DNA of 64,000 bases from Apostichopus japonicus. Lineage: Eukaryota > Echinodermata > Holothuroidea > Aspidochirotida > Stichopodidae. A model generated the notes under the pieces. It saw only the letters and a list, made by a program, of their open reading frames with translations. It did no database searches and had not been told where the DNA came from. Below, one piece after another: positions 31,401 through 39,400 of this stretch. The number at the start of each line of letters is the position of its first letter. The first letter of the stretch is position 1. A program made the translations under genes and the position numbers. The DNA lies in contig NC_092580.1 of the NCBI RefSeq assembly GCF_037975245.1, positions 2,516,501 to 2,580,500 on the forward strand, in the 5' to 3' direction.

Positions 31401-34400
31401 CTTGGTGAAGGTGAAATATTGATAGGGATTTAAGGATAAAACTTTGCTTGTCGATTTTCCCAAGTATTCTGAATAATGACGTAATTATCAATTATCTTTA
31501 GATTAAATTGTTCAAATACCGTCCTCAAATCAAAAGTCTTTATTTCCCATCCTACTGTGTGCATCCAACTGTGTTCACACCCCCCCCCCCCCACCCAACC
31601 CGGGATAATTTGACACTCCGAGTTTGGTCTCCCAAAGTAAAGACTTTGATCTTTACACATTTCTTATCTTAATCTTAATCTTCTCCGTAACGTCTGTTAC
31701 ATAAGGTCAAGATGCTCTCTTTCCACCCCTGTCGATCTTCTGCAGCTTTTCTCACATCGGACCAGCTTCTCCAGTCATTCTTGTCTCTCTCTTTAGTTGC
31801 TGTCCTTCTCCAAGTCGTCTTGGGTCTGCCAACCTTCCTCTTTCCTTCTGGTGCCCATTCCATTGCTACTCTTGCATGATTTCCTGTCTCCTTCCTCATA
31901 ATATGACCAATCCAATTCCATCTGCGTCTCCGTATCTCTACACTTATTCTGTTTATGCCTGTTTGCTGCATAATTCTGTCATTGCTAACTAGTTCTGTCC
32001 AAGGTATCTTCAGTATTCTTCGTATGCACTTGAACTGAAAAGCATCCAACTTTTGCTCCTCTCTCTTTGTCACTTTCCATGCTTCACTTCCATATAACAG
32101 CACTGATCTTACTAGCGTTTTGAATAGTGTTAGTTTTGTCTTTCTGCCTATTGCACTATTTTTCCTTATCCTTCTTAGGTTTCTTAATGCACCACGTGCC
32201 TTTCCTAATCTGTTTTTGATGTCTTCTGTACCTCCTCCATCTTTACTGACTTTGGCCCCCAGATATACAAACTCTTCTACGTCTTCCACTTCTATGTTGT
32301 TGAATTTCAGTGGCGCATCTACCCTGTTATTCATTCTCATGTGCTTACATTTCTTCACATTCATATTCAAACCAATTCTTCCTGCCATCTCTTCTACTTT
32401 CTCTGTCTTTTTCTGGATGTGGTCATGCTTTGCCGATAACAAGGCAATATCGTCCGCAAAATCCAGATCCTCAAGCTGCGTGGTATATCTCCATCTGATG
32501 CCTCTTCTTTCTCCTGCAAGTACTCTCTTCATCATCCAATCTATTGCTAACAAAAACAGGAACCCGCTCATGACACATCCTTGTTTCACCCCAGATGTTA
32601 CGTGGAACCACTCAGTTGTTTCACCTTCATCCACGACTGCGCATTCAACGTTGTCATATAAAGCCTTCACAATTCTAATTATCTTGTCTGGTATCTGGTA
32701 CTCTTTCAATATATTCCACAAGCTGTTGCGGTGTAGAGAGTCGAAAGCTTTCTCAAAATCAATAAAATGCACATACAGAGGTGAGTTCCATTCAGTTGAC
32801 TGCTCTAGGATGTTACGCAGTGTAAATATATGCTCTGTTGTACTCCTGTTTGGGCGGAAACCAGCTTGTTCTTGCCTCAAAACCTTGTCCACTCCGTCCT
32901 TTAATCTGTTGATGAGCACTCTTCCGAAGATCTTGCTCATAACTGGCAGCAATGTCACACCTCTCCAGTTGCTGCAATCTGTGAGGTCCCCCTTTTTGGG
33001 GATTTTAACAATTAGCCCCTTGTTCCATCTTTTTGTGGTTGACTCCTCTGACCATATTATATTAAAGAGGTCTGTTAGTCTTTCCACTGTAGCATTTACA
33101 TCAGCTTTTAACAATTCAGCTGTTACTTGGTCTAAACCTGGGGATTTGCCATTGCTAGTCTTAATCAATGCATCATGTACTTCCAGCCTTGTAATAACAT
33201 CTAAATCGATTTCAACCTCTGCTTCAATACGCTCATCAGTTTCACGAACCCAGTTCATTGGATCGCCTCTGTTAAACACAGAGCTAAAATGATCCTTCCA
33301 TCTGTCTTTTCTAGCCTGCTTGTCTTTAATAATATTGCCATCTATGTCCTTAACAGCAGCAGTAGTGCTCTTCCATTTTACCTGTCATTTCCGTGTTATA
33401 GCGTAAACATCTTTAAGCCTTCCATTCTCTGCTGCTCTTTGGGCATCTTGTGCCATTTTGTCTATCCACTTTCTCTTGTCACTTCTCGTACTTCTCTTTA
33501 CTTCTCTGTCTTTTATTCTGTAAGTCTCTCTCCATCTCTCTTTGATCCTCTCTGATTTTGTGCTATTAATCTTCGTATTAATTTCCCTCCTTTCATCTAC
33601 CTTAACCCATGTCTCTGCTGAGACCCAAGGTTTACTTACTCTCTTGGTGTACCCTATTGTCATCTCAGCTGCTTCTACATATACTTTCTCCAGCCCTTCG
33701 CACCATTCCTCTAGTGTTTCGACATCCAGGGCTTCATATCTGTTCTTGACCTCTACATTGTATTGCTCTCTCATCTGCCTGTCTTTAATCTTTTCAATAT
33801 CTAATTTAGGCTTTACCTTTGATCTATTCAAATATTTACACAGTTTCAGTCTTATTGTGCATCTGACAAGGTAGTGGTCGCTTATTGCGTCTGTACCTCT
33901 TTGTGTTCTTGTGTCTAGTACTGAGGTCCTCATACTCTTGTTCACTAACACATGGTCAATTTGGTTCTTCGCTCTTCCATTTGGCGAGACCCAAGTTTCC
34001 TGATGGATAGTTCTGTGTTTGAAGATCGTACCTGTGATAACATATCCATTCACTTGAAAGAACTCACATAGTCTCTATCCATTGTCGTCTCTAACACCAA
34101 TACCTTCCTTGCCCATAATGTCGTCCAGTCCTTCATTGTCGCATCCCACCTTTGCGTTGAAGTCACCTATGATAAATACCATGTCATGTCTGCTGCATCT
34201 GTCTACAATCTCTTGGAGCTGCCCATAAAACGTGTCTTTTCCCTCCTCTACTGCAGCTTCTGTCGGAGCATATACTTGTATGATTGTGACCTTCTTGTGT
34301 TTACCAAAAAACCTTGCTGTAATTAGTCTACTACTGACTGGTGTCCATTCAATGAGAGTTTTTACAATTCTCTCACTCAACATGATACCAACACCTTGTA

Positions 34401-37400
34401 CATGTGTGTTGTCGTTGCCCACATACAACAGAGTATCACCTGAAGCAAGTCTCACTTTCCCTGCACCTGTCCATCTGACCTCACTGAGGCCTAGAATGTC
34501 AATGTTGTGCCTCTCTCTTTCTCTTGCCACAATGGATGCAACTCCTGTTGCATACATAGTCCTCACGTTCCATGTGCCTAAGAATAGGCTGTGATTTGGC
34601 GTCACCACAGTTCCTATCGGGCGTTGGGCTTCCCGAAGGCTTTGGCCCAACGGCGTCATCCTGCGTCCAGTTGTGAAACTGTCTGCTACTGCAGTTAATC
34701 CAAAAAGGTTTTGTGGTCCATCATTAGGACCCTGAGCATCATTGATTTCTGTGATAAATGGGATTTTTCCAGGAGGCGGTTATCAGCCGACTGCCCAACC
34801 CCCACTCTGGAGGACCGGGTTTTCTCTTAGGGTACCTTCCCCTAGACAACTGCGTGCCAACGCTAACGAGCTCTGCCTGCCCGGGTTTGGAATCAGAGTT
34901 TCCCTCTCCTAGGGGGTTTTAAGGCTCCCCAGCCCGTTCAAGCCAGTCTAGCCTGTGATCCCCTTGAAAAGAGAGACCGAGACTAATCTTGTATAGCGCT
35001 GGCTACACGCTCCCACGCCGCTTTAGCTGTGATAAAAGTACCACACCCACCCTGCCCCATGTCCTGCTGAAAGCAGCAAGAACACCCACGTTCGTGGCGA
35101 GGAGGTGCGACTGCGGAGTTCATCCTCGCCTCTGAGGGAAAGGAATCTAAAACAGGGCTTTACACATTTAAATGTGAATAATTCTGGTTTATTTTGCCAA
35201 AATAAGTTGATATTGTTCACTGTTTCATATTTGTTTGCAAAATTGTTGCTTGTGTTTGTGGAAAATATGGAAATCGCCAACATTATATACATACACACCG
35301 CAACATCGCTCGTAAATTCTTTATTCATTGATACCAACAGAGCAGCAAATTCCACTCTAGACTGTTAAGATTCAGAGCCGTATATTTAGAATATACGGCT
35401 CTGCCAAGATTGACTGGAAAGCGCCCTCTATTAGACTATAGTGACACACGAAGTTATCGAATAGTTGCTAAAAAACCAATGGTGATTGGATATATTCCCC
35501 CAGAAGAAATATATTCTTTTAAATCTATATCTTTCTTTGTTATATAAGAGTAAGGCACCTTGTATACTGTGTGTAAGCGTCATATCTTTAATTATCTTTA
35601 ACACAGGTCAATGGGGAATGCCTACTTTCAACGTTGCCGGATTTGCTGGCGTTCTCACAGCTGTAGTAGCAAGTATGTTAGACTCACTTGGTGACTATCA
35701 TGCGTGTTCTCAGGTATCTCTTGTGCCGCCGCCACCCCTCCACGCCGTAAACCGAGGAATAGGGCTGGAAGGAATTGGTTGTATGATTGGTGCATTGTGG
35801 GGTGCTGGCGTGGGCGTCACCTCACATAGTAGCGACATATCCGTTTTAAACCTTACAAAGGTAAACAGATGATATTTTCACTCAATGTAACATGTTTATT
35901 ATGTAAACAGTTGAAAAGATCTTGATTTAATACAATTCCGTGATGATCACATAAAGAAATTAAGTTTACGAAATCTAGAATATGTGCTTCTGCTATATCA
36001 GCGGGCTTCAAGTCATGTAATTTTTTCAACTTAATTCAAAAGAAACATTTTGTTCATAGTTTACACAATTCAAGCTGGGGGTCGCACTGGTTGACTGCAA
36101 CGGACAGGCAGAAATAAATCGCAATGGTGATGCTTACAATTATGACTAGATTGATTCAAGTCCACTTGCAATGTTGGTCCTTTTGTATGAACTCTTTAAA
36201 GTATTCAGTGCCATGCAGGCCAGCATAACGCCTACATAGTTTACCACTCACAAAATTATTTGATGAGGTAAAATCCTCTGCATTGAAAAGAAAACTCGAA
36301 ACTGCATTGGCATGGCAAATATTCTCATTGAAGCCTTGTACTACATTAGAATAGGTTTGGCATCTACTGTTAGTCAATGGTTACTGTATTTGTTCACCGC
36401 TCAGTGTTCAAAGTAATGTTAAATTCTAGTTCACTGTATATAAGCTTTGAGCTTTGACTCGGAAATAATGTGAAAGTTAACCCTGTTAATTTAACTTGAT
36501 GATGTCAGATAATGGCACACTGTGCTGGGGAGTCACATGTATACAACGGTAGTACACAGCCATTCATTGACTTCAACACGCGAAATATTAATGATTTGAT
36601 CGTATTCATCGGTCAATTACCAATCGAGCAATACCGCCCAGGAAGATTTGTCCACATTTGTCTGTGACAGTTACGAATATTCAAGTTTGTTATCTTCATG
36701 GACTCACGTCATTAATGTTTACTGTTAACCTCTTCCGATTGCTTCAGACTACATTACCGTCAAGTGGTCGGTCTGGTAAAGTTAGAATAATCAGCGTTGC
36801 TAAGCGAAACATTGAGTAACAAATCATTTGGTACCAAATATGATTTTTAAATTAGGCCAATGGGCTCATAGTATTGTTTTAAGCTGTTTTGGCTATGCAA
36901 AACCCAGGCTCAGACATAGCCTCTTTTTAGTATTTAAAAAAAAATTGATAGGGACAAGAGTCCAAAATAAGTTGATCGTTTCTCACTCTTTTAGTATGTT
37001 ATTGCGCCTTTCATTGTATTCAGTGAAAAGCCCTAGTGCTGGTTATATCTGGCCTATAGAGTCATAATGTCCTTATTTCTGTGTTTCTCGAAGTTGTTGC
37101 CAGTTGACGACATTGACAGGAAATCAGACGATTTAATAGAATTAGGTCGAGAATACAAGTAAACATTTCTCTGACACAGGAGATCAATTTTTCGGCAACT
37201 CTTCCTATATATGTCAACGGTGTTTCTTTATTCACATGCACAGTTAACACGATTACTGATATGGTTTTCACAGGTCGCGAGCAGAACTGTCTTAATCCTG
37301 AGTGGGTTGATTTTTGCGGCCGTCGCGTTCCTGGCGAAATTCAGTGCCCTTATGAATGCAATTCCATCACCTGTGCTGGGAGCTTCAGCGGTTACCATTG

Positions 37401-39400
37401 GTAACTTTCACATAGACAAATACGTAACAGTCAGAGTTTATGTATGAACAAATTTCAGTTATAAAGTTAACATCTCACTTATCCTGATTCCAAGGAGTAC
37501 CGTATATATAGGCCAAGAACAGAGAATTGTCTAATTGTTTCAATCCCATTGTGTGAAATCCCACAAAACTATACTTCATTAGCTTGACATTCGTTAATTA
37601 CAAAGGGAAGTATAGTTGTGAACCAGCGTATTGCATGTGATAAATATTAATGTGCAAAGGGCTTGAAAGACTAACTGTTTAGTTGGGAGGGGCTGAAGGA
37701 ACGATTTGTGATTTGAAAAAAATATGTGGGTGTCAGAGTTTGAACGGATCATGCAATCTTTTAGGAATAGTAATAGCTAAATTTGTGAAATAAAGAACTG
37801 AAATACAAAACTTTCTTTAATTGAGATGTCGGTAGTAGACGCTGTGAATCATATACTGTATGTAGAAATGCTGCAGCCTTATGCGCCAATGGTAGAAACC
37901 GATTCCTGGCAGTAACGTTTGTCATGAAGAGTGTTGAATTTAAAATTAGAATACCTGTCGAAACCTGACTGAGGGGCAATATGGCAATTTAGGCAAACTG
38001 ACAAAATAATTGATCCAATAAGGTATATGAATTTCAAAGCAAAGTCCTGTGTTAAGATATCCAAATGGTAATTATATAATTACCTCAGAAAATGGGAATA
38101 TTTGTTATAAATTGCATTTTGAAAAATATTGCAATCATCGTACCTTGACAGGTACGGAAACAAATGGATGTACTTCCATTAAAAAAGAAAGATTGACTAG
38201 ATTAAAAAGCAACGGAATGTGCCGATCACGTGTCATGTCTCCTCTTCTTGAGTTTCAGTTACGTTTACAACTATTAGTGTGGATTACCGTTGTCTTCTGT
38301 GTAAGTGATACTTTTTTAAGGAAAAGTCGCCCAGGAAAGAACCTGGGCACGAAAACCAAACTACCAAAACGACTGATCCGCTTCTAACCCCAGTCCCCTT
38401 GCATCGAGACTGTGACTGTGTGATCATCGTCAGGTGTGCATCACCATTCCCCTCGAAAGGGAACAGATACTACACATGATCTTAGCCAAAAGGCCGAGAA
38501 GTGATACTAATCTCCCATCATGAATACCCATTGAAGGAGCTATACTACGTTTAAAAGATAAGCTATTCATTGTTGTAGTTCTTAGAAAAGGGACTTAGAG
38601 AAGCACTGAATGTAATTTAGTGAAACAGACTGCAAATGTGTTCACTCCTCTAACTGTGTGTATATATTCCACATTTCCTTTCAGGAATGATATCAGCTAT
38701 TGGATTAGCTAATTTTCAACACGTTAACATGGAAAGCTCGCGAAACATACTTGTCGTAGGAATCTCCATTTTCGTTGCCATCGGGATTCCGGGATATTTT
38801 GATAAAAACCCTGAAGCAGTTAATACTGGTAAGTAGTATCACAAATTTACAGGGTTTGGGCTTGTGAGAAGGGTCTCTATAATCACGTGGCGTTTTTATA
38901 TCAAATTTCAACTGATGTTTGTTCGAGTATATCTTTGTCTTCCTGATATGTTATTAACATGTCTCGTGTTTTTGTCTCCTGTCTCTAGGAATTGGAGTTA
39001 TCGATCAACTTTCCCTTATTCTTCTGTCAAATAAGATGTTCATGGGTGCAGCTGTTTCCGTTCTGTTAGATAACCTCATTCCTGGTACGTTTTTCTATTA
39101 CTATTCTCGATGTGTGTCTTAATATAGTTTAGAAAAGATTTTTGCTTAAGAGTCATTTTTCTTTCTTCTTCTCACAATATTATAGGGACATATGAGGACA
39201 GGGGCATGGACTGGAGAACTAAGACGTCTCAAGACAATACAGCCGTGACAATGAGTACAGAATTGTCTGTTTACCAGTTACCGTTCGGTATGAGATGGAT
39301 TCAAAAGAAGAATTGGATGAGATATGTTCCATTTAGTCCTACTTTTACAGGGTTTCGTCGACCGTACAACACTGCAGTTCCAGATGACTCGTCTGTTTAA
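25969..39400 (+). CDS. SLC23: SLC23-family nucleobase/ascorbate transporter, 12 exons, complete
   Basis: Exons: 25969-26142, 26967-27124, 27584-27675, 27929-27990, 28750-28931, 29299-29395, 30677-30833, 35607-35860, 37274-37400, 38685-38828, 38989-39084, 39186-39400. All junctions are GT-AG with matching phases, giving 585 residues, close to vertebrate SVCT proteins (~600). Family landmarks: YGISDQPPW then Q58-H59 (the TM1 QH motif, split by intron 1), LPILQG (TM3), PPPPLHAVNRG and the TM8 acidic residue E362, PSPVLG, and the IGIPGYFDKNPEAVNTG segment. Family members are multi-pass plasma-membrane carriers of ascorbate (Na+-coupled) or nucleobases. The TM10 NAT signature, normally (Q/E/P)-N-x-G-x4-T-(R/K/G), reads S383-D-I-S-V-L-N-L-T-K392 here, so substrate range cannot be assumed. 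The loop after TM2 is short. Codons are open throughout, so the gene looks functional. Confidence 0.93.
27480..27530. repeat. (AT)n microsatellite in SLC23 intron 2
   Basis: Uninterrupted TA dinucleotides ending about 55 bp before exon 3. Confidence 0.95.
28394..28452. repeat. (AT)n microsatellite in SLC23 intron 4
   Basis: Nearly 60 bp of alternating TA, mid-intron. Confidence 0.95.
29396..30676. other. SLC23 intron 6
   Basis: Non-coding. The stretch 29990-30240 (GTCACGGAGGTGATAAGTCC and purine/pyrimidine blocks) resembles dispersed repeat sequence but has no defined ends. Confidence 0.4.
31659..35000 (-). mobile_element. Antisense APE-type LINE (RTE-like) inside SLC23 intron 7, nearly intact
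   Basis: One long minus-strand frame runs from about 34659 to the TAA at 31675. N-terminal part: apurinic-like endonuclease with LGTWNVRT, LSEVRWTG, IIGDFNAKVG and SDHYLV motifs. C-terminal part: reverse transcriptase with NWRGVTLLPVMSKIF, QAGFRPNRST, FEKAFDSLH, KQGCVMSGFLF and the catalytic FADDIALLS, then a GRPKTTWRR tail. Only two in-frame stops break it: TAG at 34077-34075 and TGA at 33387-33385. The stop codon lies within a terminal AGATTA-type tandem repeat (31659-31682), so there is almost no 3' UTR, as in RTE-clade elements. GC-richer sequence from 34660 to about 35000 is probably the 5' UTR; the 5' boundary is uncertain. Opposite orientation to the host gene limits interference with its splicing. 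Confidence 0.9.
35373..35403. repeat. Perfect 14-bp-arm hairpin in SLC23 intron 7
   Basis: CAGAGCCGTATATT, loop TAG, then its exact reverse complement. About 200 bp upstream of exon 8 and close to the LINE's 5' side. Could be the remnant of a foldback element. Confidence 0.85.
35861..37273. other. SLC23 intron 8, no features recognised
   Basis: No splice-flanked coding segment matches the transporter, and no repeat ends or RNA genes were seen. Confidence 0.5.
38313..38508 (-). pseudogene. Chimeric retroinsert headed by the 5' 45 nt of U2 snRNA
   Basis: On the minus strand, positions 38505-38461 follow the U2 snRNA 5' end: CTTCTCGGCCTTTTGGCTAA, then GATCATGTGTAGTATCTGTTC, including the GTAGTA branch-point-recognition sequence. 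About 43 of 45 positions match the metazoan consensus as I recall it. The next ~140 nt are not U2; they include a GCCCAGG/CCTGGGC hairpin and end in an A-rich tail. The insert is bracketed by AAGTGATACT at 38303-38312 and 38499-38508 (plus strand), a 10-bp target duplication overlapping the U2 start. This fits LINE-driven retrotransposition of a chimeric RNA. The U2 stem-loops III/IV and a standard Sm site are absent, so it should not act as U2. Confidence 0.8.

What the first reader, a model, noticed from the sequence alone, without database searches (positions are those of the whole stretch)
38303..38508. U2 snRNA 5' end fused to an unknown RNA, retroinserted with a 10-bp target duplication
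The first 45 nt match U2 (including the branch-site recognition stretch) and then switch abruptly to ~140 nt of other sequence with a strong hairpin and A-rich tail, bracketed by AAGTGATACT. The target duplication overlaps the U2 start, implying microhomology at the 5' junction. This is either a one-off template-switch product or a member of an undescribed U2-headed SINE family.
Basis: partly seen in the sequence, partly recalled or inferred. Interest (0 to 1): 0.75.

Follow-up and report, generated by a model that had tools for sequence, protein, structure and literature searches.

The report
U2-gene-dwelling SINE with a captured head
The odd U2 fusion is one of more than a thousand copies of a small jumping element whose members also sit inside the animal's own U2 splicing-RNA genes, which suggests how a piece of a cellular RNA gene can become the front end of a mobile element.

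Summary
On the minus strand, U2 nt 1-45 (44 of 45 identical to the native gene) is followed by 143 nt of unrelated sequence, six A's and GTATC, between AGTATCACTT repeats. It is not a one-off: the U2/body junction occurs at 1,077 places in this 671.6-Mb genome (control 0), another subtype's junction at 192. Nor does template switching explain it best. The same element sits inside native U2 genes of a tandem array: U2 nt 1-45, body, AAAAA, then U2 again from nt 36, at the nt 38/39 site that L1-type, Keno-like LINEs also occupy. So the 'head' is U2 gene flank transcribed with the element, and the GTATC tail of scattered copies is U2 read-through. Two scattered dimers with U2 nt 36-45 between the bodies support this direction. 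Best model: U2-resident copies give U2-started read-through RNA that returns to U2 genes and also lands at weakly U2-like sites. Transcription and the mobilising LINE are inferred. snRNA-headed SINEs (SINEU) and U2-specific LINEs are known; my searches found no report of a SINE resident in U2 genes.

The parts
38461..38505 (-). U2 head: U2 snRNA nt 1-45 (stem-loop I and branch-site recognition sequence, domain names recalled), sense on the minus strand
   Evidence: cmscan 52 bits; 44/45 to native U2
38318..38460 (-). SINE body, unrelated to U2, 143 nt, with a strong hairpin near its 3' end
   Evidence: no U2 match beyond 7-mers; copies at over a thousand places
38329..38348 (-). 3' hairpin GCCCAGG-TTCTTT-CCTGGGC
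   Evidence: sequence and fold
38312..38317 (-). A-run of six
38307..38311 (-). GTATC after the A-run, equal to U2 nt 36-40; here also part of the target repeat
38303..38312 (-). target repeat copy at the element's 3' end (sense AGTATCACTT); its first A is shared with the A-run
38499..38508 (-). target repeat copy at the element's 5' end, overlapping the U2 start
38687..38828 (+). neighbouring exon of a nucleobase-permease-like (SLC23-type, name recalled) gene; the element appears to lie in its intron, antisense
   Evidence: Pfam Xan_ur_permease on 38687-38827, E 1.2e-05, 24.7 bits, just under the cut-off of 27

Best explanation
The insert is an off-target copy of a non-autonomous retrotransposon that also lives inside U2 snRNA genes. 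The element inserts at U2 nt 38/39, the site that L1-type Keno-like LINEs also occupy in this genome's U2 array. Target duplication leaves U2 nt 1-45 upstream and U2 from nt 36 (or 39) downstream. The U2 promoter then drives an RNA reading U2(1-45)-body-AAAAA-GTATC... (inferred). A U2-targeting LINE reverse-transcribes it (inferred). Back in a U2 gene the U2 head lets the 5' end rejoin without a seam, recreating a promoter-linked copy (inferred). At weakly U2-like sites elsewhere the same RNA leaves a U2-headed copy with a GTA(TC) tail and an 8-18-bp target duplication, such as the one in the window. SHOWN: the family, resident copies in U2 genes, a site shared with LINEs, junctions, tails, target duplications, ectopic dimers. 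INFERRED: transcription, the mobilising enzyme, homology-guided 5' joining, ectopic copies being mostly dead ends.
For: Junction at 1,077 places, reverse-pattern control 0. A prior prediction, SINE tail followed by U2 nt 36 on, was met at 6 places, all in the C16 U2 array. At 3 of the 6 the order is array spacer, U2 1-45, full body, AAAAA, GTATCTGTTCTTTTC; in two of these unit positions 1-115 (upstream plus head) are 100% identical to the array unit, and the third has one substitution in the head. Truncated residents join at U2 nt 40 and nt 53. 17 elements (6 SINE, 11 others with LINE-like 3' ends) share the 3' junction. Other elements join upstream at nt 30, 31, 45 and 50. After the A-run, 31 of 45 copy instances continue with at least 3 nt of U2 nt 36 on, against 26 of 1,150 A-run ends in flanks. 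Target duplications: 24 of 37 single-copy loci against 21 of 715 mismatched flanks. In 18 duplication-supported ectopic targets the base at -1 is A in 15, and the match to TCTGTTCT is 3.17 against 2.11 of 8, z 3.5 (two of the 18 share near-identical flanks). Two ectopic dimers carry U2 nt 36-45 between the bodies, one flanked by a single 15-bp repeat. Loop variants of two residents also occur in ectopic copies.
Against: No RNA data. No LINE with the SINE tail was found (exact pattern only), and the body has no match beyond 12 nt in LINE A or 11 nt in LINE D. LINE D's U2 junction occurs at 6 places, none ectopic, so the LINE that spreads SINE copies elsewhere may be another one. A truncated resident (U2 1-53 head) left no ectopic progeny (1 place, itself). 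14 of 45 copies have fewer than 3 nt of U2-like tail, some pure A; 13 of 37 loci, and one of the two dimers, lack a clear duplication. The dominant ectopic subtype (CCCTTTCGAGGGG) was not among the residents read. A dimer could also arise by template jumping between two read-through RNAs. One search scored only 40 of 2,990 candidates, so the copies studied were chosen for likeness to the window copy.
Confidence: 0.78

Rival explanations
1. SINEU-like origin by RNA fusion: the RT once jumped from the SINE RNA onto U2 RNA at nt 45 (or the RNAs were ligated), the chimera then spread as an ordinary SINE, and copies in U2 genes are secondary, drawn there by homology.
For: snRNA/LINE chimeras by template switching or RNA ligation are established (passages of PMC13174262; U12 and tRNA at R2 5' ends, read as template jumps, abstract of PMC3414825). 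Two ectopic loci carry extra U2 fragments at the 5' junction that look like template jumps (L006, L043).
Against: It does not explain why the tail of ectopic copies continues as U2 nt 36-40, why the head ends at nt 45 where other U2 insertions also join, or U2 nt 36-45 between dimer units.
Confidence: 0.13
2. Ordinary self-propagating SINE: ectopic copies are themselves transcribed from an internal Pol III promoter and are the main sources.
For: High copy number with several subtypes; weak A-box-like match at U2 nt 18-28 (one mismatch) and a B-box-like match with one mismatch in the mixed consensus.
Against: No exact A or B box in the consensus; the GTA(TC) tail recurs across unrelated flanks (31 of 45).
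Confidence: 0.07
3. One-off RT template-switch product joining U2 to another RNA.
For: Structure of the single window copy.
Against: 1,077 copies with the same junction.
Confidence: 0.01
4. Diverged U2 gene or full-length U2 pseudogene.
For: cmscan stretches the match over 38505-38429 with large deletions.
Against: Beyond nt 45 there is no alignment to native U2, and the same U2/body junction recurs at 1,077 places.
Confidence: 0.01

Closest known systems
SINEU (SINEs with U1- or U2-derived heads, Kojima 2015, GBE 7:1702)
   Same: U2 5' sequence as head, unrelated body, dispersed copies (the existence of the class seen in passages of citing papers).
   Different: From recall (paper not held), SINEU is crocodilian, recurrently added U1/U2 heads, and prefers a Mariner target with Tx1-Mar LINEs. 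I recall no residence in U2 genes.
Keno (APE endonuclease; Tx1 clade, recalled) and Utopia (restriction-like endonuclease), U2-gene-specific LINEs
   Same: Same insertion site: U2 resumes at nt 39 downstream of Utopia, and Keno has identical 3' flanking U2 (PMC4640811, section 6). LINEs A and D here are APE-type, as Keno is.
   Different: Keno and Utopia are autonomous; the window element is about 190 nt and non-coding. Clade membership of the LINEs was not tested by tree.
R2 and R2/R1 SIDEs in Drosophila rRNA genes (PMC3414825, abstract)
   Same: Short non-autonomous elements at a LINE's target inside a multicopy RNA gene, transcribed together with the host gene.
   Different: SIDEs are built from LINE ends, with a self-cleaving ribozyme that cuts the 28S cotranscript. 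Here no LINE-derived end was found (LINEs A and D compared), Rfam shows no ribozyme, and the flank is kept as a head.
snRNA/LINE-1 chimeras in mammals (PMC13174262, passages)
   Same: snRNA sequence in sense at the 5' end of a retrotransposed copy.
   Different: Those are described as independent events; here one junction recurs in over a thousand copies.

Membership tests
SINE | short non-coding repeat dispersed in many copies | tested here: met
   1,077 and 192 junction places (no check for overlap of the two sets)
SINE | target-site duplications and 3' tail | tested here: met
   24 of 37 loci against 21 of 715 in control; A-run plus GTA(TC) in 31 of 45
SINE | internal RNA polymerase III promoter | tested here: inconclusive
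   no exact A or B box; best matches have one mismatch
SINE of the stringent type (not SINEs in general) | 3' end shared with a partner LINE | tested here: inconclusive
   hairpin tail with non-SINE upstream found only in 3 SINE copies; exact pattern only, so a diverged LINE tail would be missed
SINEU (snRNA-headed SINE) | head derived from U1 or U2 snRNA | tested here: met
SINEU (snRNA-headed SINE) | sequence relationship to the crocodilian families | not testable with these tools
   Kojima 2015 is not held; no repeat library at hand
Keno / Tx1 (for the resident LINEs) | APE endonuclease plus RT | tested here: met
   Pfam on LINE A and LINE D only; best PDB relatives of LINE D are L1 ORF2 proteins; groups B and C not scanned
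Keno / Tx1 (for the resident LINEs) | insertion in U2 with U2 resuming near nt 39 | tested here: met
Keno / Tx1 (for the resident LINEs) | RT phylogeny inside the Tx1 clade | not tested
   no reference set at hand
U2 snRNA gene or pseudogene | alignment to U2 beyond nt 45 | tested here: not met
SIDE (internally deleted LINE) | both ends derived from the autonomous LINE | tested here: inconclusive
   no body match beyond 12 nt in LINE A or 11 nt in LINE D; LINEs B and C not compared over their full length

The most novel reading that the evidence does not exclude
A SINE that homes to its own promoter: it has no promoter of its own, returns to the same site in U2 genes with a U2(1-45) head acting as homology arm, is transcribed as part of the U2 gene, and sheds over a thousand promoterless U2-headed copies elsewhere. 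This would be the general route by which snRNA-headed SINEs arise.
Probability: 0.5. Interest if true: 0.82.

Novelty: new variant of a known kind. Interest (0 to 1): 0.72.

Why it matters
SINE heads are often explained by rare RNA fusions. Here copies resident in the source gene are still present, so head capture by insertion into a small-RNA gene can be read directly from junctions. If true, it would also explain how a SINE whose head lacks an internal promoter can multiply, and it adds a non-autonomous passenger to the LINEs that parasitise U2 genes, an essential splicing component.

Tried and rejected
Rejected: U2 gene or pseudogene; single chimera; other RNA families in the body (besides U2 only two hits far below their gathering scores). 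Looked for and not found, within the limits of exact or near-exact patterns: a LINE sharing the hairpin tail; headless copies with an intact body start; ectopic progeny of the truncated resident; ectopic U2-headed LINE D.

Full report
What is there. The window copy runs on the minus strand from about 38505 to 38307. Its first 45 nt equal the native U2 of the same genome except for one base, which lies inside the AGTATCACTT repeat and is best read as target sequence. The remaining sequence has no alignment to U2 beyond 7-mers, and besides U2 only two hits far below their families' gathering scores. The only Rfam match at gathering thresholds in the whole window is U2. An exon resembling a nucleobase permease lies at 38687-38828 on the plus strand, so the element appears to be intronic and antisense (the Pfam score is slightly below the curated cut-off).

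It is a family. A DNA search of the genome (671.6 Mb, 35 contigs, species not named) found 44 matches with only 40 of 2,990 first-look candidates scored. A 36-nt pattern across the U2/body junction with up to 3 mismatches gave 538 + 539 = 1,077 places, reverse control 0. A second subtype (CCCYTMGGG loop, up to 2 mismatches) gave 101 + 91 = 192 places, control 0. Forty-three aligned copies differ on average by 3.0% from their consensus, whose head equals U2 nt 2-45; 17 of 43 start at U2 nt 1, the rest at nt 2-9. These copies were picked for likeness to the window copy, so the divergence is not a family-wide estimate. A pattern for an intact body start preceded by two non-T letters gave one hit, which on inspection has a mutated U2 head; heads ending in T would escape this pattern.

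Retrotransposition. Among 37 single-copy loci, 24 have a target duplication of score 8 or more starting within 6 nt of the A-run, against 21 of 715 pairings of mismatched flanks; lengths are 8-18 bp. After the A-run, 31 of 45 copy instances continue with at least three letters of U2 nt 36 on (GTATCTG...), against 26 of 1,150 A-run ends in flanking DNA (tandem copies are included in the 45). In L006 and L008 the duplication shows that GTATC was not in the target. In others the target itself was U2-like, as in the window (AGTATCACTT against U2 AGTATCTGTT).

Residence in U2 genes. Native U2 genes form a 645-bp tandem array on C16, plus four genes on C15; 60 places match the first 100 nt exactly, 56 on C16 and 4 on C15. 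From the GTATC tail and the published Keno/Utopia site (PMC4640811, passages and section 6) I predicted SINE 3' ends joined to U2 nt 36 (note). The pattern search found 6, all in the C16 array. Three are full length: array spacer, U2 1-45, body, AAAAA, GTATCTGTTCTTTTCAGC (31059279, 31132296 and 31133739). In two of them unit positions 1-115 are 100% identical to the array unit; the first carries a T-to-A change at U2 nt 43. Two are truncated (31006754 behind another element with a LINE-like 3' end; 31134537 with U2 1-53), and one is a double insertion: a truncated unit after U2 nt 40, then a second unit with only GTATCTGTTC as head (31021616).

The LINE neighbours. A wider pattern found 17 elements ending AAAAGTA at U2 nt 36-38, all on C16: the 6 SINEs and 11 others in at least three sequence groups (B, C, D) with the common end ACTTGAAAGAAAAGTA. 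Coding capacity was tested for LINE A and LINE D only; group B shows long frames resembling LINE D's ORF2 by eye, and group C was not read. LINE A joins at U2 nt 30 upstream and about nt 38/39 downstream, with a CCHC ORF1 and an APE-RT ORF2. LINE D is 5,300 bp, joins after U2 nt 50, and has the same coding plan; its best solved relatives are L1 ORF2 proteins. Its 5' junction occurs at 6 places, all in the array and none ectopic. Further 5' junctions in the array lie at nt 31 (two elements, not identified) and nt 45; one at nt 45 (L020, CACTCGGCC...) reads in frame as part of the LINE A ORF2 listed, so nt 45 is a 5' joining point for other elements too.

Direction. Two ectopic loci hold dimers: U2 head, body, AAAAA, GTATCTGTTC, body, AAAAAGTAT. 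In L105 the whole dimer lies between one pair of 15-bp repeats, so it entered as one unit; in L104 no clear duplication is seen. The 10 nt between the bodies are U2 nt 36-45, as in the resident double. This is what read-through of a doubly hit U2 gene would give; a jump between two read-through RNAs is the alternative, but it too needs U2-resident templates. Two of the loop variants seen in residents (CCCTTAGGG and CCCCTCGGG) also occur among ectopic copies (100 of the 192 places were listed, 3 of them in the array).

How it most likely works. Insertion at U2 nt 38/39 puts the element under the U2 promoter; the RNA starts at U2 +1 and continues past the element into U2; target-primed reverse transcription restarts at U2 genes or, less precisely, at sites with A|T at the nick and some likeness to TCTGTTCT. 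Steps not shown: transcription, the enzyme, and the homology-guided 5' joining, which is inferred from the absence of a doubled U2 head in full-length residents.

Evidence against and limits. No LINE with the SINE's tail was found, and LINE D has no ectopic U2-headed copies, so the mobiliser of ectopic copies is open. The dominant ectopic subtype was not seen among the residents read, which may reflect turnover of the array or a gap in what was read. The truncated resident has no ectopic progeny. Fourteen of 45 copies lack a clear U2-like tail. Pol III boxes were only scanned by consensus. There are no RNA data.

Known or new. snRNA-headed SINEs are a recognised class (SINEU named in passages of PMC5753468 and PMC8010984; snRNA heads mentioned in PMC7245038; the original paper is not held, and its details are recalled). 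U2-specific LINEs are known (PMC4640811). Searches of the paper library listed no paper that I recognised as reporting a SINE resident in U2 genes; I saw only the listed part of each result, and most subscription papers and all preprints are outside that library.

Noticed in passing
L004 (C11:20354630-20355220): Three head-to-tail ectopic copies, each followed by GTACCTTTCCT, which resembles U2 GTATCTGTTCT (8 of 11); looks like repeated insertion at one U2-like ectopic target.
   Followed up: partly
L006 and L043, 5' junctions: Extra U2 fragments (starting near nt 8, reaching about nt 36 in L043 and about nt 24 in L006) precede the full U2 head inside the target duplication, as template jumping would give.
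   Followed up: partly
L044: A second SINE copy is followed by a diverged U2 stretch that continues past nt 45 (CTGTTCTTTTCA), possibly a U2 pseudogene used as target.
   Followed up: no
C5:11042412-11065986: Eight junction matches spaced about 2.7-4.1 kb apart, suggesting a segmental tandem duplication carrying the SINE.
   Followed up: no
L076 (C16, about 31.005-31.006 Mb): At an array edge the U2 spacer holds a run of about 150-bp repeats of unit positions 505-645.
   Followed up: no
window 31675-34779, minus: A separate LINE remnant with endonuclease and reverse transcriptase frames (Pfam).
   Followed up: partly
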